Assembly: GCF_023650515.1 (NCBI RefSeq)
Contig: NZ_CP096016.1
Span: 2,132,001-2,196,000 of the forward strand
Reading direction: 5' to 3'
Length of the DNA stretch: 64,000 nt
DNA from: Alkalimarinus coralli
Lineage (GTDB): Bacteria; Pseudomonadota; Gammaproteobacteria; Pseudomonadales; Oleiphilaceae
This document shows, in pieces, positions 15,435 through 61,784 of this stretch. The notes beneath the pieces were generated by a model. That model was given only the letters and a program-made list of their open reading frames with translations, was not told the DNA's origin and ran no database searches. The translations under genes were made by a program, and so were the position numbers. The first letter of the stretch is position 1, and the number at the start of each line of letters is the position of its first letter.

Positions 15435-15484
15435 GAGATCTTTGCACGACTACTGCTCTTACAAATACAGCGTTAAAAGGTCTC
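15435..15484 (-). mobile_element. MITE copy E, 50-bp internally deleted derivative
   Basis: This 50-bp segment has the left 44 bp of the 140-bp element described at 61645-61784 (one end GAGATCTTTGCACGA) joined straight to its far terminal GGTCTC, as if about 90 bp were deleted between short AAA microhomologies. It is flanked by a perfect direct repeat GTAACA (15429-15434 and 15485-15490), which looks like the target duplication. It ends only 18 bp before the cyaB start codon. Confidence 0.75.
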
Positions 15485-15502
15485 GTAACAATATTAAAAA
15501 TA

Positions 15503-16918
15503 ATGAATTCAATGACGATTACAAACAAAGCTAACCGGCAAGTCACACCTAGAAAACAGGTGGCAATTCCTCCCATGCCGGACTACAACGCGCGTGTTCT
15601 TGCTTATCTTGCTGGCGCAGCAATCATTGTTTCAGGAATTCTAACAGGGCATTTTGACGCAGAGTTAATCTGGCTAATTCCCGGCGCCATGCTTTGGCCC
15701 CATCTACTGTATTTCACGGTTCGCTACTTTAATAAACAACGCAATCCGGTTATTCGTCACCGCCTTCTTCTCATTGACGCTATATTAGCCGGGCCTATTA
15801 TCGTACTGCTCGATTTTAGCCTGGTTCCTACGCTCCTCTTTATTTTAATGATGAATTTCAGCTTCATTATTGTGGGTGGAATGAAAAGCTGGCTGTATGG
15901 GAATCTGGCCTGGTTTACCAGTATCTGCATCTCGTCACTTTACTTCGGGCTACAACTTGCCCCTCCGACTCCCATTATTGTCAGTATAGTTTCCGGTATC
16001 AGTACCGGTATCTATATCTGTGTGACAGCCTACTATACGCATCAGCAGGCCAGAGCATTGGTGCACGCTAAATCACTCATCCAGCATCAGAGAGAGCAAT
16101 CAATCACGCTTTCTCATAAGTTGGCTAAATACCTATCGCCCCAGGTCTGGCAGTCTATTTTCACCGGTGAACGTGATGTAAGGCTTGAAACCCAGCGGAA
16201 AAAGCTTGCAGTCTTTTTCTCTGATATCAAAGGGTTTACCGAGCTTTCTGAAGAGATGGAGCCTGAGAGTCTAACCGAACTTCTCAACACCTATTTCAAT
16301 GCCATGTCTCAAATCGCGCTCAAGTACGGCGGCACTATCGATAAGTTTGTGGGTGACAGCATCATGATATTCTTTGGTGACCCAACCAGTCGAGGCGCTA
16401 AAGAAGACACCCTTGCCTGTGTTGCCATGGGAATAGACATGCGTAAACGCATGAAAGTGCTAAGGCAGAAGTGGCAGAGCCAGGGGATTAGAACGCCACT
16501 GGAAATTAGAATGGGGATAAGCACGGGCTATTGCACTGTGGGGAATTTCGGTGCAGAAAACCGAATGGACTACACCATTATAGGGAAAGAAGTAAACCTC
16601 GCCAGCCGACTGGAAACGCTCGCAGAGCCGGGCGAGATACTGGTCTCGTACGAAACATTCTCGCTGGTTAAAGATATGGTTATGTGCAGAGACAAGGGCG
16701 AAATCACAGTAAAAGGGTTCTCACGCTCGGTCCCAATCTATGAGGTCGTTGATTTCAGGCGTGAAATTGGCGCTAACCAAAGCTTTATGGAGCACGAAAC
16801 AGCCGGCTTTGCGATGTATCTCGATACCGGAAAAATAGGTACAGGCGAAAAAGACCAAATTGTCCGGGCACTGGAATCTGCGGCGCAAAAACTCAAAGAC
16901 TCGGAAGATATTGATTGA
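15503..16918 (+). CDS. cyaB: Membrane-bound class III adenylate cyclase, CyaB type
   Basis: Makes cAMP from ATP at the inner membrane. Residues about 30-185 form a MASE2-type sensor with five or six hydrophobic helices; residues about 230-425 are the class III cyclase domain. Metal-binding Asp241 (FSDIKGF) and Asp285 (KFVGDSIM), adenine-selecting Lys281 and Thr358 (DYTIIG), and transition-state Asn365 and Arg369 (VNLASR) are all present, so it should be active and ATP-specific. Architecture and length (471) match Pseudomonas aeruginosa CyaB (463), which controls virulence through Vfr. ATG 15503 or 15512 is possible; neither has a strong ribosome site. The 5' region is formed by a MITE remnant and tandem repeats. 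Confidence 0.92.
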   Translation: MNSMTITNKANRQVTPRKQVAIPPMPDYNARVLAYLAGAAIIVSGILTGHFDAELIWLIPGAMLWPHLLYFTVRYFNKQRNPVIRHRLLLIDAILAGPIIVLLDFSLVPTLLFILMMNFSFIIVGGMKSWLYGNLAWFTSICISSLYFGLQLAPPTPIIVSIVSGISTGIYICVTAYYTHQQARALVHAKSLIQHQREQSITLSHKLAKYLSPQVWQSIFTGERDVRLETQRKKLAVFFSDIKGFTELSEEMEPESLTELLNTYFNAMSQIALKYGGTIDKFVGDSIMIFFGDPTSRGAKEDTLACVAMGIDMRKRMKVLRQKWQSQGIRTPLEIRMGISTGYCTVGNFGAENRMDYTIIGKEVNLASRLETLAEPGEILVSYETFSLVKDMVMCRDKGEITVKGFSRSVPIYEVVDFRREIGANQSFMEHETAGFAMYLDTGKIGTGEKDQIVRALESAAQKLKDSEDID

Positions 16919-17010
16919 GCAAACACTGTTTAAAGTGTGTTAGCTTAGACTAATTCTGGCACCAGCGCTCAATCAATATCAACAACAATGACCAACATAG
17001 GCCTCCCTTG

Positions 17011-17835
17011 CTATTGGCGGCTCAGTCGTAAATTACCTGAATAGCTCGGCTCTGTTGTTCTCAACGGGTTGATATCCAAGCCTCCCCTACGCGTATAACG
17101 GGCATAAACTGTAAGTTTCTCTGGCGCGCACTTTTCCATAATATCGATAAAGATACGCTCTACGCATTGCTCGTGAAAATCCTGATGGTTTCTATACGAG
17201 ATGATGTACCTAAGTAACCCTTCATGGTCAATTTCATCACCAGCGTAATCGATTAATACCGAGGCCCAGTCTGGCTGACCTGTAACCGGGCAATTAGTTT
17301 TTAACAGATGGGAAACCAGCTTTTGTTCAACTCGGCGCCCTTTGGTTGAAGAAAGTAACGCTGAATCCACCTCATAGCTAACATCATTGATGTCTATCAG
17401 GTCAATTAAGGTTCTCCCCTCATTACCGGCGCTAATCCCAACAGACTGCTCCAAAGGTATGATCCTGACATCAACCTTACTCTCAACAACCTTGCTTAAG
17501 TCTTTTGCCAGTACCTTTTCCAGCTGGTCAGCTGAGTCAAAAGCGGTTTGATTGAGCGAGTTTAAATAGAGTTTGAAGGATTTGGACTCAACAATATTGG
17601 CCGAACCACAGGGGATAGCAAACTCAACAATGGCAACTTGAGGTTTCCCGGAAGGGGACAGCCATGAAAGCTCGTAGCTCGTCCAGATATCAACACCGCT
17701 AAAGGGAAGCAGCGACGAGTCAATACCCAGCTCATCTCGCTTGGCCTTACGCGGAAGTGGGTGCAATAGCGCTGGCGAGTATTGATCAATATACTCAGTG
17801 CTTTGGCCCAACAGTGTTTTACTTAAATCAACCAT
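17011..17835 (-). CDS. queF: NADPH-dependent preQ0 (7-cyano-7-deazaguanine) reductase
   Basis: QueF reduces preQ0 to preQ1, the last free-base step before insertion of queuosine precursor into tRNA. This is the long, E. coli-type two-lobed form (274 residues; E. coli 282). The substrate-site motif ESKSFKLYLNS lies near residue 90, and the catalytic Cys is in KTNCPVTGQPDW near residue 190. It is convergent with cyaB and last in a same-strand group after yadG/yadH. A predicted queuosine glycosylase lies elsewhere in the window (40655-41770). Confidence 0.96.
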   Translation of the reverse strand: MVDLSKTLLGQSTEYIDQYSPALLHPLPRKAKRDELGIDSSLLPFSGVDIWTSYELSWLSPSGKPQVAIVEFAIPCGSANIVESKSFKLYLNSLNQTAFDSADQLEKVLAKDLSKVVESKVDVRIIPLEQSVGISAGNEGRTLIDLIDINDVSYEVDSALLSSTKGRRVEQKLVSHLLKTNCPVTGQPDWASVLIDYAGDEIDHEGLLRYIISYRNHQDFHEQCVERIFIDIMEKCAPEKLTVYARYTRRGGLDINPLRTTEPSYSGNLRLSRQ

Positions 17836-17919
17836 ATTATTAACCCGAAAAATACGTGGTTTCTGATCTTAACGGCATCAGCACAACCTACAAGCCGACG
17901 GCCTATTATCTGCTCTCAT

Positions 17920-18693
17920 TTAACTGCGTATCCCCTTACCTTTGTTCAGCAAGTGGAGAGAGTACACGAAGAGCACAATGGTAAATCCGATAATCATTGT
18001 AAACGCATAACCGACATCAATATCGGTTACCCCTAAAATTCCATACCGGAAGGTATTGACCATATATAAGATAGGGTTCGCCTTAGAAACCGTTTGCCAG
18101 AACTCTGGTAGTAGAGAGATAGAATAAAACACCCCTCCTAAATAGGTGAGCGGCGTCAGAATAAACGTCGGAACAATTGAAATATCATCAAACTTTGTTG
18201 CATACATCGCATTAATAAAGCCGCCCAGAGAGAACAGAATTGCGGTCAATACAACAACCGATATCATAACCAAAGAGTCATGAATCTTAAGCTCTGTAAA
18301 CCCCAATGACAGTGCTGTGACTATTGCCCCAACGGCCAAACCTCTCGCCACGCCCCCAGCAACATACCCTGTTAACACTACCCAATTTGGTACAGGCGAA
18401 ACAACCAGCTCCTCAATGCTCTTTTGAAATTTCATGCCAAAAAACGACGAAACAACGTTGGAATAGGAATTGGTAATTACCGACATCATAATCAAACCAG
18501 GAACGATAAAGTCCATGTAATGGTGGCCTTCCATTTCTCCGATTCTTGGGCCAATCAAGTTTCCGAACACGACAAAGTACAACGCCATCGTTATCGCAGG
18601 TGGCAGCAAGGTTTGCACCCATATGCGGGTGAATCGACGTATTTCTTTCACTACGATCGTTTGAAAAGCGATAAATATTCGGTATGCGCCCAT
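17920..18693 (-). CDS. yadH: ABC-2 type transporter permease, YadH family
   Basis: Inner-membrane subunit of an ABC exporter, 257 residues with six predicted membrane helices and the ABC-2 family segment SFFGMKFQKSIEELVVSPVPNW between helices. Length matches E. coli YadH (256). It begins on the base following the yadG stop codon, so the pair is translationally coupled. The substrate of YadGH is not established. Confidence 0.93.
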   Translation of the reverse strand: MGAYRIFIAFQTIVVKEIRRFTRIWVQTLLPPAITMALYFVVFGNLIGPRIGEMEGHHYMDFIVPGLIMMSVITNSYSNVVSSFFGMKFQKSIEELVVSPVPNWVVLTGYVAGGVARGLAVGAIVTALSLGFTELKIHDSLVMISVVVLTAILFSLGGFINAMYATKFDDISIVPTFILTPLTYLGGVFYSISLLPEFWQTVSKANPILYMVNTFRYGILGVTDIDVGYAFTMIIGFTIVLFVYSLHLLNKGKGIRS

Positions 18694-19614
18694 CTACCTA
18701 CCCTCCTCAACCATGCGCACAAACAACTCTTCAAGCCTGTTAGACCTCGCCCGAATGCTCGCCACTTCAACAGAGGCACGATTCAGCTCGGAAAAGAGCG
18801 TATTAATTGTTTGCCCTTGGGCAATATCTACCTCTAGCTCCCCTTCACTATTGAGCCTGGCGTTAAATCCGACCAAGTTGGGGGCTTGTTCAAGGGGCTG
18901 AGCAAGATCAAGCACAAACGTTTCAGAGTGGAGACGGCTTAATAGCTCTCTTTTGCTGGTATTCGCCAAAATATCGCCCTGATCAATAATAGCTATATTG
19001 CGACAAAGCGACTCTGCTTCTTCAAGGTAGTGTGTGGTCAGAATAATAGTGGTGCCTTGCTGCTCATTCAGCTCTTTCATGAACTCCCACATTGAACGAC
19101 GAAGCTCAATATCGACACCTGCGGTAGGTTCGTCAAGTATGAGCAACCGTGGCTCGTGCACGAGGGCTCTCGCAATCATCAGTCTGCGCTTCATGCCCCC
19201 CGAAAGCAGCCTTGAAGGTATATCCCGCTTATCCCACAAGCCCAACTTTTTTAGGTACTTTTCTGCACTCTGCTTTGCTTTAGCGGCCGGTATCCCGTAA
19301 TAACCCGCCTGGGTGACTACGATATCAAAGACTTTCTCAAACTGATTAAAGTTAAATTCCTGTGGAACAACACCTAATTGCATCTTTGCCTTAACAAGAT
19401 CGACATCAATATCATAATCGAATATCTTAACCTGGCCTGATGTTTTTCCAACCAGCGACGAAACAATCCCAAGTGTTGTCGATTTTCCAGCACCATTTGG
19501 GCCTAACAATGCGAAAAAGTCGCCTTGCTTCACCTCAAGCGAAATACCTTTTAAAGCTTCATGTCCGTTGCTATAGACTTTACGTAACCCTTGGATACTC
19601 AGTGCGTTATACAT
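18694..19614 (-). CDS. yadG: ABC transporter ATP-binding protein, YadG family
   Basis: ATPase partner of YadH, 306 residues. Walker A is GPNGAGKST, the signature is LLSGGMKRRLMIARAL, Walker B is LLILDEPTAGVD, and the H-loop is ILTTHYLEEAE. ATG 19614 was chosen because the frame's first codon is a TTG two codons upstream. The adjacent permease completes a typical two-gene exporter. It lies 77 bp after tapT on the same strand. Confidence 0.94.
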   Translation of the reverse strand: MYNALSIQGLRKVYSNGHEALKGISLEVKQGDFFALLGPNGAGKSTTLGIVSSLVGKTSGQVKIFDYDIDVDLVKAKMQLGVVPQEFNFNQFEKVFDIVVTQAGYYGIPAAKAKQSAEKYLKKLGLWDKRDIPSRLLSGGMKRRLMIARALVHEPRLLILDEPTAGVDIELRRSMWEFMKELNEQQGTTIILTTHYLEEAESLCRNIAIIDQGDILANTSKRELLSRLHSETFVLDLAQPLEQAPNLVGFNARLNSEGELEVDIAQGQTINTLFSELNRASVEVASIRARSNRLEELFVRMVEEGR

Positions 19615-19691
19615 AGTCAACTTTCAGTAGTGGCATAAGGGGGTTAATGTTGGGCCGAAAACAGAAAATTCAACTACTGCGGACAAACTGC

Positions 19692-20360
19692 TTACTCGCA
19701 ATCGCCCTGCGTATAATTTTTTCGGTATAACTCCTCTCCCATTCGGCTGATCTGGTAATCAATCATATTGGTAAAGCATTCAAGCATCACATCAACATTA
19801 GTTAGCGGTTCTACTGTTTGAAGTGCTTGAGAGACCGCTTCGACTGTAGAAAGATAGTCAGAAAAAGGGGCTTTTCGAATTCGATAGTTTGATTTTTCGG
19901 CTGGATCCAGACAGACAAAGGGAATGTCGTGCAACAGCTTATTAACACTCATGATTTCACGGGTATTGCGCCACGTACCATCCAAGACGATAAGCGTTTT
20001 CTTGCTGTTGATACCCTCTGCAGTTTCCCCACGAAGAGGCCCTGCAGCATTGAGCTCTTCGAGGTTGTTGTACCAGTCCCCCAAACGTGTCGACGACTTT
20101 GAAGGGTACAGCAGTGCCAAATTTCCACTGCCACTATACAAGAGGCGGCTCAACTCTTCATCGCAAGAGAAGTCAACTCCCACCTTGATAGCCACATTTT
20201 GAAGGCAAAGAGAGACAATTTTTGCCGTTCCTAACGGCTTTTTTACTTCGTCGGGATGCTGAAGAATTAAGATCGATGTTTTATTGAATACAGGCGCTAT
20301 CCACTTGCAGATACAAGCAACACGTGCGTTTCCGCAAACCTTGCAACGCTCTCTTGCCAT
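19692..20360 (-). CDS. tapT: tRNA-uridine aminocarboxypropyltransferase (DTW domain)
   Basis: TapT (YfiP in E. coli) transfers an aminocarboxypropyl group from S-adenosylmethionine to uridine-47 of tRNA. The family's D-x-T-W motif is present as VLDGTWRNTREI near residue 125, and an N-terminal Cys cluster (RCKVCGNARVACICKW) is typical. Length is 222 (E. coli 232). Its ribosome site GAGGAG, 8 nt before the ATG, lies inside an 8-bp hairpin (separate entry). Confidence 0.9.
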   Translation of the reverse strand: MARERCKVCGNARVACICKWIAPVFNKTSILILQHPDEVKKPLGTAKIVSLCLQNVAIKVGVDFSCDEELSRLLYSGSGNLALLYPSKSSTRLGDWYNNLEELNAAGPLRGETAEGINSKKTLIVLDGTWRNTREIMSVNKLLHDIPFVCLDPAEKSNYRIRKAPFSDYLSTVEAVSQALQTVEPLTNVDVMLECFTNMIDYQISRMGEELYRKNYTQGDCE

Positions 20361-20368
20361 TGAAATTG

Positions 20369-20405
20369 CTCCTCATACCAAAGGCGCGTAGCTTAGCATG
20401 AGGAG
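20369..20405 (-). promoter_or_regulatory. Hairpin enclosing the tapT ribosome-binding site
   Basis: On the minus strand CTCCTCAT pairs with ATGAGGAG across a 21-nt loop; the second arm contains the Shine-Dalgarno GAGGAG of tapT. In mRNA read through from the HD-GYP-like gene upstream this structure would hide the ribosome site. There is no T-run after it, which argues against a plain terminator. Confidence 0.5.
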
Positions 20406-20421
20406 GTCTGAGGAAAAACGA

Positions 20422-21750
20422 TTAACTCGAAAAGTGGCGCCAGCTCCAACGGCTAGTCGCACCGGTAATAAGATAGTTTGACGGGTCAATATCATAGGCT
20501 CCCGCCGGTAAACTGCCCGATATGTTGAGCGCTTCTTTCTGTCCCTTACCCTCGTTATAGGCCAATAAATCAATGATCTTGGCCTGCTTCAAAGGTTTCT
20601 TATCGCCATTGAGTACTACTGCAACCTTTGGCCACAATCTTCTTTTCGGGTTATGGTTTAAAACAATACCCACCTCCTGGCTGTTTAACTCAACAAGTGT
20701 TCCTGTTGGGTAAACCCCTATCGCCTTTATGAAGCTCTCAACCAGTTCTTCCTGAAACTCTATATTACGGCTTTCATAAAGCTTTGATACTGCTACTGCG
20801 GCAGGTGCTGGCTGAACGCCTGGCCGCGGCTCAATCATTTCCTGATACGCATCCACCAACCCCGCGATTTTAGCCAGCAGTGGAATTCGATCTCCTGTTA
20901 TACCGTTCGGAAACCCTGTACCGTTGTGCCGCTCTCGATGACACCTAACAACATCAATAACAGCATTGGCGACATTACCCGATGATTCTAAAATCTCAAC
21001 GCTATATTCTACATACTTTTTATAGTGCTCAAAGGCTTCAGCATTTAATGTATGCTGGTGCTCCAGAACCTCCTTCGGTAACTTAGCCTTGCCAACTTGC
21101 GACAACAGCACTGCGGTCGAAAGCTGCTTGAGAACCTCTTTCTCCAACCCCAGGTAGCGTCCCAATACTAGCGCCCAAATAGACGCACTAATTGCATGCT
21201 GGTAACTAAACTGATCATGAGTATTAACACGCGTCAGCCAAACCAGCGCATCAGGGTTGCGAATGACACTTTCAACCATGCCATCAACCGCTTTACTAAC
21301 ATCCTTATAAACCGGAGTACCGCCAGAGTGAATGGTTTCAAATATATTGGTTAACGCAACACTGACATTGCGCTGCAACTTGCCCACCTTAGAAACCTCT
21401 TTCTTCAAAGAAGAAACTGTTTTTCCGGAAGCTATGTCAGGATATTTAACCCTGTTCCGTATTTTCAGTGGTGGGAGCTTTAAAACAGATGCACCTGTTT
21501 CTCGGGAACTAGCCCCACTATAGCCTGAGCCCCCCATGACTGCGTGTTTTTCATATGCCTGCTTTTTGGCAGATACGACATCGACATAAACGTGTTTGCA
21601 GTATGATTCCAGAGATTTAACTTCATCAGCACTTCTAATATAGAAACCCTGTATAGGAAAAGGCGTTTCACACCACGGCCTATCAAGGTTGGATACATAC
21701 ATTCCAATCTGTAACTCGTGTACGGGTATTTTTTGTTGATTACCCTGCAT
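20422..21750 (-). CDS. HD-GYP-related protein with degenerate active site (DUF3391 N-terminus)
   Basis: A 442-residue cytoplasmic protein with an N-terminal DUF3391-like region (IPVHELQIGMYVSNLDRPW) and a C-terminal HD-GYP-type domain. The first His (YQHAISASIWAL, residue 185) and the H-N-G-T-G-F-P segment near 275-281 are recognisable, but the metal-binding HD dyad, normally in LLHDIGK, reads LLSQVGK (Ser217-Gln218), and GYP is GFP. HD-GYP enzymes hydrolyse cyclic-di-GMP; with the dyad lost this copy is probably a non-catalytic sensor or adaptor, like P. aeruginosa PA2572 (YN-GYP). ATG 21750 has AAGGGTG upstream and is preferred to the TTG six codons earlier. Confidence 0.85.
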   Translation of the reverse strand: MQGNQQKIPVHELQIGMYVSNLDRPWCETPFPIQGFYIRSADEVKSLESYCKHVYVDVVSAKKQAYEKHAVMGGSGYSGASSRETGASVLKLPPLKIRNRVKYPDIASGKTVSSLKKEVSKVGKLQRNVSVALTNIFETIHSGGTPVYKDVSKAVDGMVESVIRNPDALVWLTRVNTHDQFSYQHAISASIWALVLGRYLGLEKEVLKQLSTAVLLSQVGKAKLPKEVLEHQHTLNAEAFEHYKKYVEYSVEILESSGNVANAVIDVVRCHRERHNGTGFPNGITGDRIPLLAKIAGLVDAYQEMIEPRPGVQPAPAAVAVSKLYESRNIEFQEELVESFIKAIGVYPTGTLVELNSQEVGIVLNHNPKRRLWPKVAVVLNGDKKPLKQAKIIDLLAYNEGKGQKEALNISGSLPAGAYDIDPSNYLITGATSRWSWRHFSS

Positions 21751-21971
21751 GACATTCACCCTTAACAATCAACTATCGTAATATGCAAAAAAGACTTTCG
21801 GTTAGTGTTCATTTTGCAGAACCACCCCACAAGGTGCAATTACACTTCTGTTGTTAAATGTATCCTGTTGTTTCAGATGTATTACATATCGTACGTTTGC
21901 CACACACATCACATTAATAACGCGTAACGGCCCACACTATCATTTGAAAGAGCCGAAATGATAATCGAACC

Positions 21972-22111
21972 GAGAGCTTTGCACGATGTTATGAGCGAAG
22001 CAAAGACAAGGCAAAAAATGACGAAAAAGCGCAGTTTATGTGTAATAAATGAGCATTTTGAGTCATTTTTTAACGATGAATTTGTAAGCGCAGTAGTCGT
22101 GCAAAGCTCTC
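21972..22111 (+). mobile_element. MITE copy A, 140 bp, perfect terminal repeats and 5-bp duplication
   Basis: A 140-bp element bounded by perfect 15-bp inverted repeats GAGAGCTTTGCACGA / TCGTGCAAAGCTCTC, flanked by GAACC on both sides (21967-21971, 22112-22116). A second, inner inverted repeat (AAAAAATGAC / GTCATTTTTT) lies about 40 bp from each end, so the whole element is an imperfect palindrome. It differs from copy B by only two bases, hence recent movement. It encodes no transposase. Confidence 0.9.
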
Positions 22112-22167
22112 GAACCTATACTCTATTTTAGCCAATGAATTAAGCATCAGCCTAAATCCAGCCAAAA

Positions 22168-22761
22168 CTATTTATCACCCTCACAAATTTTGCTCGACAT
22201 AAGGGGGGCTTTATCGGCAAAGCTATACCGCTCAACTTTACGGGTAGCGACACTATAAGGAACAACTGACGCCTTTAAGTAGTCCATATTGACGCTCTCC
22301 CCTTCTTCTTTACGAGTTGTCGCTACAGGCAAACAACTGACCGATATGAGCACCCGACTTTCCAGATCAACTATCTTTGTTGCCTGCTGATTGTCAGTCA
22401 CCGATACACACACATTTTTGTCATCCGGGAGGGGCCGCCCTGAAAGCGATAAATCCATTGTTTTATTGCCGCACGCAACGATACCTTCATGCGCTTCTGT
22501 GCATTCATTTTGATCCGTCGACAAATCGGCTAGCGCCCACTTGCGTTCGCTGCACTGAGTTTCCAGAACAAACTCTGTTGCCTGGTTGTCCTGAATTGCC
22601 CAGGAAGGGTATTCAGCTGTCTTCCAGGAAACCACAAACTTCCGCTCTTCTCCTTTGGAGTTCTGAGCAGAGAAACTCCCGTAATGCGAATAGTATGAAG
22701 CACAACCAACGATATTAACTATCAGCGTTACAAATATTATTCCCTTAACTATTTTTATCAT
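22168..22761 (-). CDS. Hypothetical lipoprotein
   Basis: A 197-residue protein of unrecognised family. The N-terminus MIKIVKGIIFVTLIVNIVGC is a lipoprotein signal with the acylated Cys20, so it should be anchored in the inner or outer membrane. The mature part has six further Cys residues, suggesting disulfides in the periplasm, and a high content of polar residues. It stands alone between the MITE and a PilZ gene on the same strand. No function can be given. Confidence 0.75.
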   Translation of the reverse strand: MIKIVKGIIFVTLIVNIVGCASYYSHYGSFSAQNSKGEERKFVVSWKTAEYPSWAIQDNQATEFVLETQCSERKWALADLSTDQNECTEAHEGIVACGNKTMDLSLSGRPLPDDKNVCVSVTDNQQATKIVDLESRVLISVSCLPVATTRKEEGESVNMDYLKASVVPYSVATRKVERYSFADKAPLMSSKICEGDK

Positions 22762-22995
22762 TTACCTGACTGCCTGTTATTTTATATTTCAAGTTACGCG
22801 ATTTACCCCAAATAAATCCATTAAAGTCAATGGATGCAACCCCAGGAAAGGTATCAATCATAGTGGAGTTTTTTATATTAGGGCGTGTTGAGTCTAGTTT
22901 CGAGGATGCAGATTATACGCTCAAATTGGGAAAGCGTGCTGCGTTTTCATAAGATTGAGATAGGGTTCAAGAAATAGGCTAGCTCCGCCACGAGA

Positions 22996-23262
22996 CTAAT
23001 CGTTAGGCACAAATTTTAATCCAAATCCGTCTTCTCCTTTCCTGACCACAACCATATCCAAAATGGGGGCTTCGAACGGCAAATCTTGCATTTGCACCTT
23101 AACGACACTACCCATCGGTGGAAAAGCAGAGTCACCCACAATGACATAGACGCCACCATCGGAAATATCCCTCACATAAAATATGCCATCACCTACCACT
23201 TCATGAGTCACTTTTACTTTTGCATTTAGAAGCGTCCTAACATGAACTCTCTTATCAACCAT
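22996..23262 (-). CDS. PilZ domain protein, putative cyclic-di-GMP receptor
   Basis: An 88-residue single PilZ domain. Both cyclic-di-GMP contact motifs are present: RxxxR as RVHVR (residues 5-9) and a D/NxSxxG-like RDISDGG near residue 36. These residues predict ligand binding. It is a monocistronic gene upstream of the divergent iron transporter; no output partner is adjacent, although the same region holds a degenerate HD-GYP protein. Confidence 0.88.
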   Translation of the reverse strand: MVDKRVHVRTLLNAKVKVTHEVVGDGIFYVRDISDGGVYVIVGDSAFPPMGSVVKVQMQDLPFEAPILDMVVVRKGEDGFGLKFVPND

Positions 23263-23416
23263 ACGTTTCTATATCGCCCTAACAACTTAACAACATTAAA
23301 GGTTCACGCCCTAATTATGATCTTAGTCATATCTAGATGATAGCATCACACCTAGAATGAGCGAATTAAAAACAGGATATTTATAATTAATTGTTGACAA
23401 CCGCTCGCAATATAAT

Positions 23417-23435
23417 GAGAATTATTATCATTATT
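23417..23435 (+). promoter_or_regulatory. Fur box ahead of fbpA
   Basis: The 19-mer GAGAATTATTATCATTATT matches the classic Fur consensus GATAATGATAATCATTATC at 15 of 19 positions. It overlaps a TATAAT hexamer (23411-23416) and lies 26 bp before the fbpA start, the right place to repress the iron transporter when iron is plentiful. Confidence 0.8.
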
Positions 23436-23460
23436 ACTTCCATTACGAGAGTTTTATTCG

Positions 23461-24480
23461 ATGCTTAACCTGAAACGTCTTATTCCTACCTCACTTGTCA
23501 TTGCTGCTACAGCGGCTACATCCGTTCAAGCAAACGAAGAAGTAAATGTCTACTCATATCGTCAACCGTTCCTGATGCAGCCTATCTTTGATGCATTTAC
23601 AAAAGATACCGGTATTGATGTAAATGTCGTCTTCGCCAAAAAAGGATTAACAGAACGTCTTAAGCGAGAAGGTAAAAACAGCCCGGCGGACTTAGTGTTC
23701 ACGGTAGATATCGGGCGATTAAGTGAAGTGGTCGAGGCTGGCGTTGTACAAGGTGTAACAACACCTGAACTGGAAAATAATATTCCAGCACAATACCACG
23801 GCCCAGATGGACAATGGTACGGTTTAACCACACGTGCCCGCGTAATCTACGCGTCAAAAGAGCGGGTTGCCAAGGATGCGATAAAAACCTACGAAGACTT
23901 AGCAAAGCCTGAATGGAAAGGCAAGATTTGTACTCGCAGTGGCAAGCACCCATACAACGTAGCGTTGATTGCATCAATGATCGCGAATAATGGTGAAGCT
24001 GAAACAGAGAAGTGGTTAAAAGCCGTTAAAGATAACCTGGCTCAAAAACCACAAGGAAACGACCGCGCACAAGTAAAAGCGATTAAGGAAGGGGTTTGCG
24101 ATCTGGCTATCGGCAATAACTACTACTATGGAAAAATGCTGATGGACGAAGAGCAGTCAGCTTGGGCGAGATCCGTCAATATCGTATTCCCTAACCAGGG
24201 TGACCGAGGAACACACGTTAACATCAGCGGTGTATCTCTTACCAAAAGCGCACCAAACAAAGACAATGCAATCAAGCTCATGAACTTTTTGTCAGAAGCA
24301 ACCGCTCAACAAATATATGCTGAGCAGAACTTTGAATACCCTGTTAAGCCAGGTGTTGGACCTTCAGCACTTGTAGCTTCATGGGGAGAGTTCAAGGCTG
24401 ACAAGCTCCCTCTCAACGAGATTGCAAAATATCGCAACCAGGCGGTTAAATTAGTTGATCGAACAGGGTTTGATAACTAA
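23461..24480 (+). CDS. fbpA: Ferric iron ABC transporter, periplasmic binding protein
   Basis: Periplasmic Fe(III)-binding protein of 339 residues. A Sec signal peptide ends near ATSVQA before NEEVNVYSYR; the consecutive tyrosines in AIGNNYYYGKM near residue 220 correspond to the iron-binding di-tyrosine of the FbpA/HitA/FutA family. The Fur box just upstream supports iron control. fbpB follows after 67 bp containing an 8-bp hairpin. The name follows the Neisseria/Haemophilus nomenclature. Confidence 0.92.
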   Translation: MLNLKRLIPTSLVIAATAATSVQANEEVNVYSYRQPFLMQPIFDAFTKDTGIDVNVVFAKKGLTERLKREGKNSPADLVFTVDIGRLSEVVEAGVVQGVTTPELENNIPAQYHGPDGQWYGLTTRARVIYASKERVAKDAIKTYEDLAKPEWKGKICTRSGKHPYNVALIASMIANNGEAETEKWLKAVKDNLAQKPQGNDRAQVKAIKEGVCDLAIGNNYYYGKMLMDEEQSAWARSVNIVFPNQGDRGTHVNISGVSLTKSAPNKDNAIKLMNFLSEATAQQIYAEQNFEYPVKPGVGPSALVASWGEFKADKLPLNEIAKYRNQAVKLVDRTGFDN

Positions 24481-24487
24481 AGTAGCA

Positions 24488-24519
24488 GCCCAGACGAAGT
24501 TTTATTACTGAGTCTGGGC
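24488..24519 (+). other. Intercistronic hairpin fbpA-fbpB
   Basis: Perfect 8-bp inverted repeat GCCCAGAC / GTCTGGGC with a 16-nt loop, starting 8 bp after the fbpA stop. It has no T-run. Such hairpins between binding-protein and permease genes commonly protect the upstream mRNA and lower expression of the permease. Confidence 0.55.
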
Positions 24520-24547
24520 AACTTACTCGCTATCTTCGGTCTAATTG

Positions 24548-26215
24548 ATGCAAACACAGGCTACTACACCCCCCCTCCATCGAGTCTTCCGTAACCCTTG
24601 GTTTCTCTCCTCTGCGTTTATCGCATTTATGGTTGGCTTGCCTATCATTGCGGTCTTTTACCTCGCGTTTTACCCCGAAGAAAATATCTGGCCCCATCTA
24701 CTCGATACAGTACTGTCCGGTTACGTTTCCAGCACCCTTATTTTAATGACAGGTGTCGGTTCGCTAAGCCTTTTTATGGGGGTCGGCTCTGCGTGGCTGG
24801 TTACCATGTGCAAGTTTCCTGGCCGAAAAATGCTTGAGTGGGCTTTGCTGCTGCCATTTGCAGTGCCGGCCTATGTTATCGCCTACGTTTATACCGACCT
24901 GCTGGAGTACGCAGGTATTGTGCAGGGAACCCTCCGCGAGCTGTTTGGTTGGTCTTCTTATAAAGAGTACTGGTTCCCCGAAATAAGAAGCATGGGCGGC
25001 GCTATAACAATGATGGCACTGGTACTCTACCCCTATGTATACCTAATGAGCAGAGCGGCTTTTCTAGAACAGTCAATGTCACTGTTCTCTGTTAGTCGAA
25101 ACCTCGGACACACACCACTCCAAAGCTTTTTTAGGGTGTCTTTACCTGTGGCACGCCCTGCCATTGCCGTTGGCTTATCTCTGGTCTTAATGGAAACACT
25201 TAATGATTTCGGCACCGTTGATTTTTTTGCGGTTAAAACCCTGACCGCTGGTCTTTACGACACCTGGCTTAACATGGGGAACCTTGGTGGCGCCGCGCAA
25301 ATAGCCAGTTTAATGCTCATTTTTGTCGTCACACTGATATATATGGAGCGCTTTTCAAGGCGGAAACAAAAACAGTTTGAGTCTAAGAATCAGGGGCAAT
25401 CACTCGAGCAATTTCAACTAAGCGGTGTTAAAGCGGCCGCTGCAACATTTTTCTGTTTGCTGCCTGTGGTTACGGGCTTCCTAATCCCAATCTCTGTACT
25501 TGGCTATTACGCCTACCATTACTTTGAAGTGAGTTGGACTAGCAAGTTCGTCAGCCATGCAATGAATAGTTTTACACTTTCAATCATTGCAGCCACGACC
25601 ACTATCGTCATCGGTGTAACACTGGCTTATAGTAAGCGACTAAACTCCAGTGGGATAACCAGTTTATTAGTTCGCTTCTCAGGGCTCGGCTATGCGATGC
25701 CTGGCGCAGTACTCGCTGTCGGAATTATTGTCCCCTTCGCGGCCTTCGATAATGCGTTAGATGATTTTCTGCGAGTGAACTTCGGGGTGTCGACCGGCCT
25801 TCTGCTTAGCGGCACAACATTCGCAATAATTTTTGCCTATACAGTGCGATTTTTGGCGGTATCAGCAGGCTCTGTTGAGTCGAGTCTGGCAAAAGTCACA
25901 CCGAGCATGGATATGGCGTCCCGCTCGCTGGGCCGAAACAACCTGAGCACGCTATTAAGGGTTCACCTGCCAATTATCCGGGGGGGAATTCTTACGGCTG
26001 CGTTGGTGGTATTCGTTGACTGTATGAAAGAGCTACCGGCTACATTGATTTTAAGGCCTTTTAACTTTGAAACACTCGCCACCCATGTATATCAGTTCGC
26101 ATCAGATGAACTTTTGGAGCAAAGCGCTCTTGCTGCACTGATTATTGTTTTAGTGGGCATTCTGCCGGTTATATTCCTCAGCAAATCGATTTCTTCCACA
26201 CGCACAAAGAAATAA
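24548..26215 (+). CDS. fbpB: Ferric iron ABC transporter, fused permease
   Basis: Inner-membrane permease of 555 residues with two homologous halves of about six helices, as in FbpB/HitB/ThiP. Each half has an EAA-type loop (ASRSLGRNNLSTLLRVHLP in the second, with SVSRNLGHTPLQSFFRVSLP in the first). ATG 24548 is preceded by an in-frame TTG. The stop codon is part of the 5-bp target duplication of MITE B. No ATP-binding gene follows, so the ATPase must be encoded elsewhere, as reported for the hitAB arrangement in Pseudomonas. Confidence 0.92.
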   Translation: MQTQATTPPLHRVFRNPWFLSSAFIAFMVGLPIIAVFYLAFYPEENIWPHLLDTVLSGYVSSTLILMTGVGSLSLFMGVGSAWLVTMCKFPGRKMLEWALLLPFAVPAYVIAYVYTDLLEYAGIVQGTLRELFGWSSYKEYWFPEIRSMGGAITMMALVLYPYVYLMSRAAFLEQSMSLFSVSRNLGHTPLQSFFRVSLPVARPAIAVGLSLVLMETLNDFGTVDFFAVKTLTAGLYDTWLNMGNLGGAAQIASLMLIFVVTLIYMERFSRRKQKQFESKNQGQSLEQFQLSGVKAAAATFFCLLPVVTGFLIPISVLGYYAYHYFEVSWTSKFVSHAMNSFTLSIIAATTTIVIGVTLAYSKRLNSSGITSLLVRFSGLGYAMPGAVLAVGIIVPFAAFDNALDDFLRVNFGVSTGLLLSGTTFAIIFAYTVRFLAVSAGSVESSLAKVTPSMDMASRSLGRNNLSTLLRVHLPIIRGGILTAALVVFVDCMKELPATLILRPFNFETLATHVYQFASDELLEQSALAALIIVLVGILPVIFLSKSISSTRTKK

Positions 26216-26217
26216 AA

Positions 26218-26357
26218 GAGAGTTTTGCACGACTACTGCGCTTACAAATTCATCGTTAAAAAATGGCTCAAAATGCTCATTTATTACACATAAACTGCGC
26301 TTTTTCGTCATTTTTTGCCTTGTCTTTGCTTCGCTCATAACATCGTGCAAAGCTCTC
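26218..26357 (-). mobile_element. MITE copy B, 140 bp, inserted at the fbpB stop
   Basis: A 140-bp element in the opposite orientation to copy A, with ends GAGAGTTTTGCACGA / TCGTGCAAAGCTCTC and the same inner inverted repeat. The flanking duplication TAAAA occupies 26213-26217 and 26358-26362; its first copy includes the TAA stop of fbpB. It differs from copy A at two positions. Confidence 0.9.
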
Positions 26358-26373
26358 TAAAACTATATCGCTA

Positions 26374-26820
26374 CTACTCCTTTTGCACGACAAACTCCCC
26401 ATTAAAACTGGCACAAAGCCCCCCTTCACAGAAGACATCAGAGTTAATTTTTAACCGCGCCTTTCCCATTCGGCGATATATTTTTACAAACTTGTCCCAA
26501 GCCAGTTGATCTGATATTTCACATACCGACACAAACTCACGTGTTACCGGCTTGTGGTAGTGGATTTGCCCATCAAAAATAACGATAACCCCATCTTCAC
26601 ACACCTCTAAAAGCTTTATGTACAGCAACCCCCATGCGGACAGCACGGCGGCACAATATAAACTGCCTCCAAATGCGGTATTTTTATGGTTCACATTGGG
26701 AGGCAACGGTAAATCTATCGTCAATAATTGGCCGTCATAGGACGCCACTCTTGCCCCCAAAGCGCCGCTCAGAGGAATATTCTCATCAATCGTTTTCTGA
26801 AGTGCTTGAACTAAATCCAT
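26374..26820 (-). CDS. Putative thioesterase, YiiD C-terminal (hotdog) family
   Basis: A 148-residue hotdog-fold protein like the C-terminal domain of YiiD. The signature NHKNTAFGGSLYCAAVLSAWGLLY, with the conserved TAFGGS turn and central helix, is clear, as is the GQIHYHKPVTREF strand. Such proteins are predicted acyl-thioesterases, but no substrate is known. It is convergent with fbpB and separated from it by MITE B. Confidence 0.82.
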   Translation of the reverse strand: MDLVQALQKTIDENIPLSGALGARVASYDGQLLTIDLPLPPNVNHKNTAFGGSLYCAAVLSAWGLLYIKLLEVCEDGVIVIFDGQIHYHKPVTREFVSVCEISDQLAWDKFVKIYRRMGKARLKINSDVFCEGGLCASFNGEFVVQKE

Positions 26821-27143
26821 CTGAACACCTTACTACCTATGCACGCTAAATTATTCAGTCACATGCTAAAAGACATATCCACCAGAGTACACTAGACTTT
26901 GGCCTATAAAGTTTCACTCATCAAGTAGTCGCATGGGGGAAATTAAAATAGTCTCACCCTCACACCCTAATCCACCACTTTAACAATTTTCAACGTATTA
27001 TAACCCCCTTTCGCTTGACACTATTTAGCTGAACAAGGAAGATTCCCTCCTTTGCAATAAAGTAGTGTTAAACTTCGTTGAGCAGTCACTTAATCTTCAT
27101 TTAACAATAATAATTAGCACCGAACTAACAGCGGAATTTGTGG
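26821..27143. other. Intergenic region without recognised features
   Basis: About 320 bp between divergent genes. A TTGACA hexamer at 27015-27020 points rightwards but has no convincing -10 at normal spacing. No repeats, RNA gene or ORF are recognised. Confidence 0.4.
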
Positions 27144-27557
27144 ATGGAACACGGCGAACCCCAGTTGATCCGAAAAAGTAACAGAAAACATGACTCAGGC
27201 TTCACCTGCACTAAATGTAAACAGGGCATCATGGAGCCTTTGCATCATGAAGGTGAGCCAGAATATACCGACATTTTTGCCTGTAATCAGTGCAATCACC
27301 AGGCAACAATCCCCTCTCTGGTTATCATTTCAAGCCAACTTGTTTCGGCAATTATGGGCGGCCTGCTCTCGGTATATCTGTTTATTCAGCACCTATCTAA
27401 AGTGCTCACTTCATTTCAGTTTAATACCAGCGACAAACTCACGCTTAACGTAACCTTTAGCGTAATCGCAGCGCTCTTTATTGTTGGGTTTATCTATACC
27501 TTATACAGGGCTTTCGTTGGCATTAGCCGACGGAAGAAATACAAACGAAGCTATTAG
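27144..27557 (+). CDS. Zinc-ribbon membrane protein, unknown function
   Basis: A 137-residue protein with an N-terminal C-x2-C...C-x2-C zinc ribbon (FTCTKCKQG and FACNQCNHQ, residues about 17-50), then two hydrophobic helices (about 55-80 and 103-125) and a basic tail RRKKYKRSY. The ATG at 27144 is chosen; the frame extends two codons to a TTG. It lies 56 bp before the ABC importer operon on the same strand, but no functional link is evident. Confidence 0.6.
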   Translation: MEHGEPQLIRKSNRKHDSGFTCTKCKQGIMEPLHHEGEPEYTDIFACNQCNHQATIPSLVIISSQLVSAIMGGLLSVYLFIQHLSKVLTSFQFNTSDKLTLNVTFSVIAALFIVGFIYTLYRAFVGISRRKKYKRSY

Positions 27558-27613
27558 GCATTCGTACACCATAATTAACCTATTTAACAACATTGCTGTC
27601 AAAAGGGGCTGTC

Positions 27614-28576: not shown

Positions 28577-28587
28577 TATTTATCAAA

Positions 28588-28621
28588 CCAGGCCACGGTG
28601 AAAAACGATACCATGGCCTGG
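28588..28621 (+). other. Intercistronic hairpin in the TrpXYZ-like operon
   Basis: CCAGGCCA pairs with TGGCCTGG; with one mismatch the stem extends by three more pairs (GGT/ACC), loop about 10 nt. It lies 11 bp after the binding-protein gene and 115 bp before the permease gene, with no T-run, like the hairpin between fbpA and fbpB. Confidence 0.55.
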
Positions 28622-28736
28622 AAAATATAAGCCGCATTTAACCTAGGCCTACGGCCTCAACATCCTGAACCACGTCTGTTTTTATTAATCCAGTTGCTCG
28701 GTTATTTATAATTTTTTCTACATTAAGAGGTAATCT

Positions 28737-44306: not shown

Positions 44307-44316
44307 CAAGGAAGTA

Positions 44317-47002: not shown

Positions 47003-47044
47003 ATATCACAAGAACGATGCCGTTCTTTTATGCAGGTTTACTAA

Positions 47045-56409: not shown

Positions 56410-56547
56410 GAGGCCTTTGTACGACCTTATAAGCGAATCAAAGACAAGGAAAAAATGACGAAAAAACGCAGTAGATATTTAATACATGAGCATTTTGAGT
56501 CATTTTTTAACGCTATATTGTAAGCACAGTACTTGTGCAAAGGTCTC
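56410..56547 (+). mobile_element. MITE copy C, 138 bp, most diverged
   Basis: Same orientation as copy A, with ends GAGGCCTTTGTACGA and CTTGTGCAAAGGTCTC, carrying several changes in both repeats and in the interior. Flanks are TAGTA (56405-56409) and TAGCA (56548-56552), an imperfect 5-bp duplication, so this looks like the oldest of the full-length copies. Confidence 0.8.
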
Positions 56548-59217: not shown

Positions 59218-59279
59218 TAAATACACTGTTTTTTACGGGCTAATGAATCGACTTTGCAAATATGGGAGTTACTGCAAAA

Positions 59280-60155: not shown

Positions 60156-60535
60156 ACATCACTCCATGCAGGGGGTTTGTGCAAAGTAAAAAAGGATATG
60201 TTAATCGCGAGCCCCCAGTTAAACAAGAGTTGAAGTCAGATTTAGCACCAGTTAGATATATAATTGCCAAATTAAATATCGTGCACGACGCCACTCATGA
60301 ATGGTGGCGAGCAACACAGGTCAAAAAGTAGCCAACCATAAATGACGAACAGCTTCACTCTCAGCATAATTCTTTACTAGGGTTGACAGCTAACTATACT
60401 TAAGCAGAACATATAAATTTTACTAACACCCCAATTTAATTAATAAAACACTCTAGGGTTTGAGAACCAACATGGCACTAAATAAGTGCTCTACCCTCGC
60501 TATCTAATTTAACTCTTAAGAATTGGACCGTTTAA
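60156..60535. other. Divergent intergenic region dapA/gcvR
   Basis: About 380 bp that must hold promoters for both genes. A TTGACA at 60383-60388 points towards gcvR without a -10 at normal spacing. No hairpin with a T-run, repeat or RNA gene was recognised. Confidence 0.4.
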
Positions 60536-61084
60536 ATGAGCACAACATCCACCAAAGAAAACCATCTAGTCATTTCTGCAATCGGCGGAGACCGACCAGG
60601 CATTGTAAATGAGCTTGCTAAAGCCAGCGCTGAAAATAACTGTAATATCATCGATAGCCGAATGACGGTGCTCGGGGGTGAATTTGCCGTTATCATGATG
60701 GTATCCGGCTCTTGGAACGATATTGCAAAACTTGAGAATACAATCCCTGCACTCGCTAAAAAGTTAGAGCTAACAACAATTATTAAGCATACCCAGCCGC
60801 GTGAACCCAAAGCGGCTATTTGCTATACCGCCAATGTCGTTGCGCTAGACAACCCAGGCATAGTTCATGAAATCGCAAACTTCTTTTCAAAGCAGAACAT
60901 CAATATCGACGATCTGCAGACTGGTACATATAGCGCCCCTCACACAGGCACACAGATGTTTAACCTGAATATGTCGATTACAGTGCCATCCGACACACAC
61001 CTTGCAACACTAAGAGAAGAGTTTATGGTGTTTTGTGATGACCTGAACCTTGATGCTGCGATTGAACCAGCAAGAAATAGTTAA
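60536..61084 (+). CDS. gcvR: Glycine cleavage system regulator, two ACT domains
   Basis: A 182-residue protein made of two ACT domains (about 8-80 and 92-175), the first starting HLVISAIGGDRPGIVNELAKA. GcvR in E. coli binds GcvA and represses the glycine cleavage operon when glycine is absent. Placement next to dapA on one side and a bcp-type gene on the other is the common gammaproteobacterial arrangement. Confidence 0.92.
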   Translation: MSTTSTKENHLVISAIGGDRPGIVNELAKASAENNCNIIDSRMTVLGGEFAVIMMVSGSWNDIAKLENTIPALAKKLELTTIIKHTQPREPKAAICYTANVVALDNPGIVHEIANFFSKQNINIDDLQTGTYSAPHTGTQMFNLNMSITVPSDTHLATLREEFMVFCDDLNLDAAIEPARNS

Positions 61085-61142
61085 GTATTGGCTCTGCTAT
61101 TTCAGCAATAACTCACAACCCGAATAAACTACGGTACCATCC

Positions 61143-61610
61143 ATGTCGAAAATAGAAATAGGTGCAACGATTCCCCAATTTGAGTCGACTGCCACCAACA
61201 ACACTACAGTGACCCCAGAAAACCTTAAAGGGAAGAACGTTGTCATTTATTTTTACCCAAAAGACAACACTCCAGGTTGCACTACGGAAGGGCAGGACTT
61301 TAGAGACCACTCAAAGGCGTTTGCTGATGCCAATACCGTTATTTTTGGTGTATCCAGAGATAGCCTGCGCGTGCATGAGAACTTCAAGAACAAACACGAG
61401 TTCACGTTTGAGCTTATTTCAGACCCCGACGAATCGCTGTGTAAGCTATTTGACGTAATAAAGCTTAAAAAGCTGTATGGAAAAGAATATATGGGGATTG
61501 AAAGGAGCACATTTTTAATCGATAGTAAGGGAGTTCTTCGAAACGAATGGCGCAAAGTGAAAGTTAAAGGCCACGTAGCCGAAGTGCTAGATGCAGTACA
61601 GAACCTATAA
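61143..61610 (+). CDS. bcp: Peroxiredoxin, Bcp/PrxQ type
   Basis: A 155-residue thiol peroxidase. The peroxidatic Cys46 is in NTPGCTTEGQDFRD, with the supporting Arg in VSRDSLRVHENF. The second Cys five residues on, which resolves the sulfenic acid in E. coli Bcp (TKEAC), is Gln51 here; Cys100 (ESLCKLF) is the only other Cys. It follows gcvR by 58 bp. MITE D lies 34 bp after the stop. Confidence 0.94.
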   Translation: MSKIEIGATIPQFESTATNNTTVTPENLKGKNVVIYFYPKDNTPGCTTEGQDFRDHSKAFADANTVIFGVSRDSLRVHENFKNKHEFTFELISDPDESLCKLFDVIKLKKLYGKEYMGIERSTFLIDSKGVLRNEWRKVKVKGHVAEVLDAVQNL

Positions 61611-61644
61611 AATAAGCCATAGTTTTCAACAGATATTTTTATAT

Positions 61645-61784
61645 GAGATCTTTGCACGACTACTGCGCTTACAAATACAGCGTTAAAAAATGACTCAAAA
61701 TGCTCATTTATTACTCATAAACTGCGCTTTTTCTTCATTTTTTGCCTTGTCTTTACTTCGCTCATAACGTCGTGCAAAGGTCTC
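61645..61784 (-). mobile_element. MITE copy D, 140 bp, with TATAT duplication
   Basis: A 140-bp element in the same orientation as copy B, ends GAGATCTTTGCACGA / CGTGCAAAGGTCTC, flanked on both sides by TATAT (61640-61644, 61785-61789). The inner inverted repeat AAAAAATGAC / TCATTTTTT is present. It is about 90% identical to copies A and B and closest to the partial copy E at its left end. Confidence 0.9.

What the first reader, a model, noticed from the sequence alone, without database searches (positions are those of the whole stretch)
15435..61784. A family of about 140-bp miniature transposable elements, five copies in 64 kb
Copies at 21972-22111, 26218-26357, 56410-56547 and 61645-61784, plus a 50-bp derivative at 15435-15484, share 15-bp terminal repeats (consensus GAGACCTTTGCACGA), an inner inverted repeat AAAAAATGAC / GTCATTTTTT, and flanking 5-bp direct repeats (GAACC, TAAAA, TATAT; imperfect TAGTA/TAGCA). 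Copies A and B differ by two bases. These are hallmarks of MITEs mobilised by a transposase from elsewhere. All five are intergenic, and the near-identical copies imply recent activity. No transposase is in the window.
Basis: seen in the sequence. Interest (0 to 1): 0.7.

Follow-up and report, generated by a model that had tools for sequence, protein, structure and literature searches.

The report
Orphan MITE family with swappable centre
About ninety copies of a tiny, gene-less jumping element are scattered between the genes of this bacterium, the enzyme that moves such elements was found only in other bacteria, and the middle of the element appears to have been swapped between copies again and again.

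Summary
All five copies are at the stated coordinates and belong to a genome-wide family: 88 full-length copies (56 fit a 140-bp model best, 32 a 161-bp model) plus fragments. Of these, 57 of 88 carry a perfect 5-bp target duplication (1.7 expected), and none interrupts a called ORF in its middle. They are MITEs.

I found the likely parent: an IS5-family insertion sequence of about 1,203 bp (NCBIfam transpos_IS5_4, 327-aa transposase) with the same 15-bp ends and 5-bp duplication, in other bacteria, mainly Gammaproteobacteria. A same-genus draft genome has ends of such an element, cut off at contig ends. The transposase was not detected in this complete genome, so the family looks orphaned, although some copies are still identical.

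Unexpected result: the two length forms differ consistently only in a central cassette at the hairpin tip, and this cassette is uncoupled from the arms. The left arm predicts 9 of 9 right-arm sites tested and the right arm 4 of 4 left-arm sites, yet neither predicts the centre. Copies with identical arms carry different centres, window copies A and B included. A repeat-assembly artefact is the main rival; 10 of 30 cassettes with a sequence of their own argue against it.

The parts
15435..15484 (+). 50-bp internal-deletion derivative: left arm (44 nt) plus a short right end
   Evidence: nhmmer 37.7 bits
15429..15490 (.). 6-bp direct repeat GTAACA on either side of the 50-bp copy (15429-15434 and 15485-15490)
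21972..22111 (-). MITE copy A, 140-bp form, TSD GAACC (21967-21971 / 22112-22116); arms identical to the 161-bp copy at genome 4736834
26218..26357 (+). MITE copy B, 140-bp form, TSD TAAAA (26213-26217 / 26358-26362); arms identical to the 161-bp copy at genome 4670350
26275..26284 (+). short centre of copy B (GCTCATTTAT), the stretch that the long cassette replaces in 161-bp copies; copies A and D carry the same ten bases
   Evidence: position counted by hand
56410..56547 (-). MITE copy C, 138 bp, older and diverged, imperfect TSD TAGTA/TAGCA
61645..61784 (+). MITE copy D, 140-bp form, TSD TATAT (61640-61644 / 61785-61789)

Best explanation
This is a MITE family: a non-autonomous DNA transposon with 15-bp inverted ends (GAGASYTTTGCACGA-like), moved in trans by an IS5-family DDE transposase that recognises those ends and makes a 5-bp staggered cut at AT-rich intergenic sites. 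Shown: ends, 5-bp duplications, copy number, absence at syntenic sites in congeners, and insertion sequences elsewhere with the same ends and duplication length. Inferred: that a transposase of that group did the moving, and that it was lost from this lineage or came from outside. In addition, the centre of the element, near the tip of its hairpin, exists in two alternative forms (10 nt, or about 31 nt) that have been swapped between copies many times while the arms stayed together. Shown: the statistical uncoupling and arm-identical pairs with different centres. Inferred: that this is real ectopic exchange (short-tract gene conversion or template switching at the hairpin tip) and not an assembly error.
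For: 88 full-length copies, 57 with a perfect 5-bp TSD against 1.74 expected, none at exactly 4 bp, one at 6. End pattern with up to 1 mismatch: 179 hits, 7 for the reversed control. No copy in the middle of a called ORF: 5 of 88 overlap one by more than 20 nt, each at the ORF's 5' end. Four congeners have at most one weak match each and lack the element at three syntenic window sites. IS5-family elements: of 81 pattern matches, 51 have a frame that starts M[AV]WK[NQ], and in 49 of these 51 the five bases left free in the pattern complete GAGAC (37), GAAAC (6), GAGAG (5) or GAGTC (1) ends. Copies of 1,203-1,204 bp with 327-aa transposases have 5-bp TSDs AGCTT (L195) and AATGG (L209); NCBIfam NF033581 at 267.6 and 281.8 bits, cut-off 140. 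Transposase undetected in G000 at E<=10, while the three genomes known to hold it ring at 2.4e-173 or better. Centre uncoupled: NN concordance 0.497, permutations 0.546; 24 changes on the arm tree, shuffled labels 22.4 +- 1.8, while 15 of 15 arm sites need fewer than their shuffled mean and 14 of 15 fewer than every one of 100 shuffles; left arm predicts 9 of 9 right-arm sites and right arm 4 of 4 left-arm sites, neither predicts the centre (P 0.55, 0.47); arm-identical pairs with different centres. Of 22 copies with an arm partner at 0 or 1 difference, 6 have an imperfect TSD, more than I would expect for such young copies, which also points to exchange between copies.
Against: Inner MITE sequence shows no similarity to the four IS copies tested, so descent by internal deletion from that IS is not shown; only ends and TSD length are shared. 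IS copy L247 has no matching flanks. 18 of the 179 end matches with up to one mismatch lie outside the stretches I fetched (about 7 in all expected by chance); all 117 perfect ones lie inside. G004, which has the IS-like ends, gave no transposase match either, which fits a collapsed repeat but is not proof of it. Only DDE_Tnp_1 and this IS5 group were sought in the genome. The swap result rests on one assembly of unknown method; a short-read gap-filling error could mimic it. A G/T site at the cassette edge keeps a little linkage to the arms within the long form (6 changes, shuffled 8.8, P 0.03).
Confidence: 0.77

Rival explanations
1. The MITE family is real, but the apparent centre exchange is an assembly or gap-filling artefact: arms are anchored by unique flanks, while the middle was filled with the centre of a random copy.
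For: The pattern (arms linked across a centre that is random) is what such an error would give; the data come from one genome assembly of unknown method.
Against: 10 of the 30 long cassettes read differ from the consensus, each in its own way, one of them (genome 4736834) in a copy whose arms equal window copy A; its single change recurs, with another, in one other copy (4141441). Sites close to the cassette keep their linkage to the far arm (114, 116 and 69). Some 140-bp centres carry rare variants too.
Confidence: 0.2
2. A domesticated structural or regulatory repeat (REP- or ERIC-like RNA hairpin near gene starts) kept by selection, with mobility only in the past.
For: Intergenic placement, median distance about 100 nt from called gene starts (my simple caller misses some genes); strong hairpin in copies B and D (z -5.1 to -7.1), weaker in copy C (z -2.2).
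Against: Intact 5-bp duplications and identical copies; near absence from four congeners; no promoter-like or terminator-like site in copy D, the only copy scanned; no Rfam match at the five window copies. A hairpin is expected from inverted ends alone.
Confidence: 0.1
3. Mobilised by the resident 1,707-bp insertion sequence (546-aa DDE_Tnp_1 transposase, 12 copies) whose ends also begin with GAG.
For: It is the only intact DDE_Tnp_1 element found in the genome.
Against: Its ends are GAGGCTGTGAAAGTATC, its duplication reads as 3 bp, and it lies in one kind of REP-like site, unlike the 5-bp AT-rich targets here.
Confidence: 0.03
4. The two centres mark two old lineages, and the arms came to look alike by independent parallel mutation.
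For: Arms are short, so some homoplasy is certain.
Against: Copies with different centres are identical over 132 arm columns in three groups; among pairs with at most 3 arm differences, 60 of 134 differ in centre, 61.1 expected at random.
Confidence: 0.02

Closest known systems
IS5-family insertion sequences of the NCBIfam transpos_IS5_4 group (loci L195, L209, L247 here)
   Same: 15-bp ends GAGACCTTTGCACGA or GAGAGCTTTGCACGA; 5-bp target duplication in intact copies L195 and L209
   Different: Code for a 327-aa transposase; no detectable similarity inside the ends; transposase undetected in this genome
ATR MITE of Neisseria meningitidis with proposed parent ISNme1 (as described in PMC4596501, passages read)
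   Same: Type II MITE with an IS5-family proposed parent; ISNme1 ends GAGACCTTTGCAAAA share the first 12 bases
   Different: 19 copies per genome reported, 88 full-length here; proposed parent known from the same species; I did not compare the interiors
BrickBuilt of Porphyromonas gingivalis (PMC4596501, passages read)
   Same: IS5-type ends GAGACCTTTGCA, intergenic; contains a 23-nt tandem repeat, as does one relative here (genome 1286139-1286265, 23-nt spacing)
   Different: 19 copies, much longer (991 nt in one copy), inconsistent target duplications; matching ISPg elements in the same species
BOX elements of Streptococcus pneumoniae (PMC3049150, passages read)
   Same: Small interspersed hairpin repeats whose middle module varies while the ends stay
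   Different: BOX varies by copy number of tandem boxB modules; here two different centres replace each other at one place
REP, 'evolution by gene conversion?' (Higgins et al. 1988; seen only as a title in the reference list of PMC2267715)
   Same: Idea that bacterial palindromic repeats spread or homogenise by gene conversion
   Different: Here the exchange concerns the centre, with the arms left alone

Membership tests
MITE | Short, no coding capacity, terminal inverted repeats | tested here: met
   136-162 bp in the 88 full-length copies, 15-bp ends; too short for a transposase
MITE | Target site duplication of fixed length | tested here: met
   57 of 88 perfect 5 bp, 20 more with one mismatch, 11 with more
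MITE | Many dispersed near-identical copies | tested here: met
   88 full-length copies, no departure from uniform placement (KS P 0.60); some identical
MITE | Precise empty sites in relatives | tested here: inconclusive
   Absent at three syntenic sites in four congeners, but intergenic DNA too diverged for base precision
MITE | Mobilised in trans by a cognate transposase | not testable with these tools
   Needs a transposition assay
IS5-family-derived MITE (transpos_IS5_4 group) | Ends equal to those of an IS of the group | tested here: met
   37 of 51 IS-like starts have exactly GAGACCTTTGCACGA and 5 GAGAGC, both also MITE end types
IS5-family-derived MITE (transpos_IS5_4 group) | Same target duplication length as the IS | tested here: met
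   5 bp in intact L195 and L209 and in interrupted L253; intact L247 has no matching flanks
IS5-family-derived MITE (transpos_IS5_4 group) | Interior derived from the IS by deletion | tested here: not met
   Local scores 21-23, shuffled mean about 20, in 4 of 4 IS copies compared; a closer IS may exist
REP/ERIC-type or Rfam repeat | Match to a described family | tested here: not met
   Rfam at gathering threshold: only one tRNA in the window; ERIC and REP were not compared directly

The most novel reading that the evidence does not exclude
The hairpin tip of a bacterial MITE is an exchange hot spot: a small centre (10 or about 31 nt) is passed between dispersed copies, by short-tract ectopic conversion or template switching begun at the tip, faster than the arms collect point mutations and with tracts too short to carry along markers about ten bases away.
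Probability: 0.5. Interest if true: 0.62.

Novelty: new variant of a known kind. Interest (0 to 1): 0.45.

Why it matters
As a MITE family it is ordinary in kind, but large, with many intact target duplications and without a detected transposase, so it is a clean case of a non-autonomous element that spread where its enzyme can no longer be found. If the centre exchange is real, about ninety natural copies with known chromosomal addresses form a ready test system for how palindromes in bacterial genomes are broken and repaired from distant copies, and they would show that exchange tracts of a few tens of bases can act on elements far shorter than usual recombination substrates.

Tried and rejected
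Autonomous copy in the host: not found as far as tested. Resident 1,707-bp IS as mover: rejected on ends and duplication length. MITE interior as an internal deletion of the IS: no similarity. Carriage on viral contigs: exact arm pattern and IS-start pattern, 0 hits each. IS end in plasmids: no match. Copies clustering along the chromosome by centre type: not significant (P 0.115). Independent origin of like arms: rejected by arm-identical pairs. Cassette as a free-standing repeat: none outside elements in the 8.6% of the genome held; the rest was not searched for it. In one search the borders of the centre were set wrongly (columns 29-189), so its figures are void; replace them. Nine of 88 copies (arm divergence of 12% or more) were dropped; the test with all 88 gives the same result. 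One of the 32 copies assigned to the 161-bp model (2786767) has a short centre; it is among the nine dropped, but is counted as long in the all-88 test and.
Full report
OBSERVATION. The end pattern occurs 9 times in the window with up to two mismatches, 1.83 expected, 0 of 100 shuffles as high. The 50-bp copy has a complete left end, a remnant of the right end and a 6-bp flanking repeat.

GENOME-WIDE INVENTORY. The window lies in a single-contig genome of 4,826,299 bases. The end pattern with up to one mismatch gives 92 + 87 hits, 4 + 3 for the reversed pattern. Arm patterns give 95 right-arm and 86 left-arm places; with the 100 end matches that were listed they group into 103 clusters. I fetched DNA around the clusters (415,486 bases held). 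All 117 perfect end matches of the genome lie in what I hold (60 of 60 and 57 of 57); of those with up to one mismatch, 80 of 92 and 81 of 87 do. nhmmer with models of the two length forms gave 102 clusters, some of them fragments of one copy and one doubtful; 88 are full length, 56 best fitted by the 140-bp and 32 by the 161-bp model. One of the 32 (2786767) has a short centre. Besides these there are relatives of 39 to 81 bp with both ends.

TARGET DUPLICATION. With the length scanned from 2 to 11 bp, an exact flanking match of 5 bp is found in 57 of 88 copies (expected 1.74), of 4 bp in none and of 6 bp in one; 20 more copies have one mismatch in 5, and 11 have more. Targets are AT-rich; the base before the duplication is T or C in 50 of 57 and the base after it A or G in 48 of 57. 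No copy interrupts a called ORF in its middle; 5 of 88 overlap an ORF by more than 20 nt, each at the 5' end, where my caller takes the furthest start. The caller is simple and missed some window genes, for example 26374-26820, which has a Pfam domain.

AGE. Median divergence from the form's consensus is 5.0% (140) and 5.6% (161); the most diverged are 19.9% and, leaving out 2786767, 18.1%. Copies at 1985116, 2697256 and 3113419 are identical, as are 1000907 and 2912007. The target duplications of the three identical copies have 0, 1 and 2 mismatches; of 22 copies with an arm partner at 0 or 1 difference 16 have a perfect duplication and 6 do not; of 12 with no partner closer than 13 differences 2 have. 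So duplications decay with age, but some old insertions seem to carry young sequence, which fits conversion between copies as well as movement.

RELATIVES. Of five genomes of the genus searched (this one included), this one has the family, two have one weak match each and two none. One match is a 39-bp element with the same ends in G001; the other is a related element in G004. Exact end matches were found in 13 of 151 genomes of the family, at most 3 in any genome but this one. A 155-bp element with these ends and part of the inner sequence, but without matching flanks, exists in another genus (L167). The region 13000-29700 is syntenic in all four congeners, most long matches at 70-78% identity, and none has an element at the three window sites there; intergenic DNA is too diverged to show the join base by base, and in G003 and G004 the gene to the right of site 26218 has no match. 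The other two window sites were not compared.

PARENT. Three end matches in draft genome G004 lie within 53 bases of contig ends, as a collapsed multi-copy repeat would. The sequence beyond the end in G004, G006 and G199 is alike, and in G006 and G199 a frame follows that I read by eye as MAWKNLK. Of 81 matches in them, 51 have a frame that starts M[AV]WK[NQ]; in 49 of these the five free bases complete an end of the type, 37 exactly GAGACCTTTGCACGA, 6 GAAACC, 5 GAGAGC and 1 GAGTCC; two (L238, L252) do not. Whole copies: L195 (1,203 bp, TSD AGCTT) and L209 (1,204 bp, TSD AATGG), each with a 327-aa transposase; L247 (1,203 bp, 327 aa, no matching flanks); L253 (1,331 bp, interrupted frame, TSD TCATT). 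Pfam: DUF772 plus DDE_Tnp_1; NCBIfam: NF033581, IS5 family, over its cut-off. The two main MITE end types (GAGACC, and GAGAGC or GAGAGT) resemble the two IS end types, which would fit two waves of mobilisation; this is inference.

NO TRANSPOSASE HERE. With the L195 protein, G000 gave nothing at E<=10; in the same search of 10 genomes 6 rang: the three that hold L195, L209 and L247 (2.4e-173 or better), G199 (4.5e-35), and G006 and G044 only marginally (0.022, 1.3); G004, G017 and G036 did not. DDE_Tnp_1 finds 14 places in G000: 12 copies of a 546-aa transposase, one truncated relative and one remnant. That element has other ends and, as I read the junctions, a 3-bp duplication. Other transposase families were not sought.

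THE CENTRE. The two forms share both arms and differ in the middle: AAAATGCTCATTTAT, or AAAAT(G/T)GTGCGCTCTCCTGGGTCGACCGGGACTTAT, just left of the hairpin loop. Linkage among the 88 copies: the centre has r2 of at most 0.04 with each of the 16 arm sites in the table (the cassette-edge column 78 has 0.30), while arm sites keep r2 up to 0.67 with each other and the fifth bases of the two ends have 0.78 across the whole element. In the 79 copies with arms under 12% diverged (52 and 27; 9 dropped), nearest neighbours by arms share the centre in 0.497, expected 0.546 (P 0.82); each of 14 arm sites tested, predicted from columns more than 15 away, beats its permutations (P 0.0044 or less). On the arm tree the centre needs 24 changes, shuffled labels 22.4 +- 1.8; 15 of 15 arm sites need fewer than their shuffled mean, and all but site 122 fewer than every shuffle. 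The tree is poorly resolved, so 24 is not a count of events; three arm-identical groups with both centres are the firm minimum. The left arm alone predicts 9 of 9 right-arm sites (P 0.046 or less) and the right arm 4 of 4 left-arm sites (P 0.001 or less), and neither predicts the centre (P 0.55 and 0.47). Among 134 pairs with at most 3 arm differences, 60 differ in centre, 61.1 expected at random. Within the long form, a G/T site at the cassette edge keeps a little linkage to the arms (6 changes, shuffled 8.8, P 0.03).

READING OF THE CENTRE. Either the centre is exchanged between copies in tracts too short to carry neighbouring markers, or the assembly filled centres at random. Ten of the 30 long cassettes that matched differ from the consensus, each with its own set of changes, though three single changes are shared by two copies each; one lies in a copy whose arms equal window copy A. 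So these centres were probably read at their own locus. Of the ten, the nearest arm neighbour has the short centre in 3, the long centre in 2, and both tie in 5. The element folds into one long hairpin with the centre near its tip. Cleavage of hairpin tips by SbcCD followed by repair from another copy is known in principle (general knowledge, no call) and is my preferred mechanism; whether this host has SbcCD was not tested.

LITERATURE. BrickBuilt and the Neisseria ATR element are MITEs with ends of the same GAGACCTTTGCA type or a proposed parent that has them (PMC4596501, passages read). Prokaryotic MITE copy numbers reach 150 for ERIC in Salmonella and 711 in Photorhabdus (PMC10969869, passages read), so 88 is high but not a record. 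The exact 15-bp end was in no paper held; its first 12 bases were in two. Searches for gene conversion or variable centres in bacterial MITEs listed nothing that by title or start of abstract reports a centre exchanged independently of its arms; of those papers I saw passages of two and the rest only as listings.

VERDICT. The finding is a real, apparently orphan IS5-type MITE family that moved not long ago, a new member of a known kind, with an unexpected exchangeable centre that makes it a new variant if confirmed by long reads.

Noticed in passing
L145-L156 (genome, outside the window): Twelve copies of a 1,707-bp insertion sequence with a 546-aa transposase; the junctions compared (11 copies against L145) lie within one kind of REP-like sequence (TGATTCCGCTTC / TTCGCTGCATCA) with what reads as a 3-bp duplication (TTC, TAC or TGC), as if site-specific for that palindrome.
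   Followed up: partly
genome 1286139-1286265 (L095): A short relative of the MITE holds three 23-nt tandem units of right-arm sequence, recalling the 23-nt tandem repeat in BrickBuilt of Porphyromonas.
   Followed up: partly
window 42136-42170: A 35-nt stretch inside ORF 42048-43196 resembles the MITE left arm (nhmmer E 0.004; also found by the repeat finder); may be chance or an old fragment.
   Followed up: no
window 15313-15378: 17-bp tandem repeat (TCTCGACAGACAATGCC) just upstream of the 50-bp element; the corresponding interval is much shorter in the four congeners.
   Followed up: no
window 44316-45166 and 47044-47894: Two neighbouring ORFs, 73% identical DNA in long blocks, 2,728 bp apart, without a Pfam hit at E<=1e-8: a diverged gene pair of unknown function.
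   Followed up: no
L172:2533-2650 and L165:778-872: Other small elements with the same type of ends but different interiors in other genomes of the family, without matching 5-bp flanks: possibly further MITE families that the same IS group may drive.
   Followed up: no
centre of the 140-bp and 161-bp copies, loop between TTTAT and ATAAA: The hairpin loop of about 5 nt is very variable (TACTC, AGACC, TACAT, TACAC, TCCA, GAATA and others) while its stem partly changes on both sides together (TTTAT/ATAAA, ATATAT/ATATAT).
   Followed up: partly
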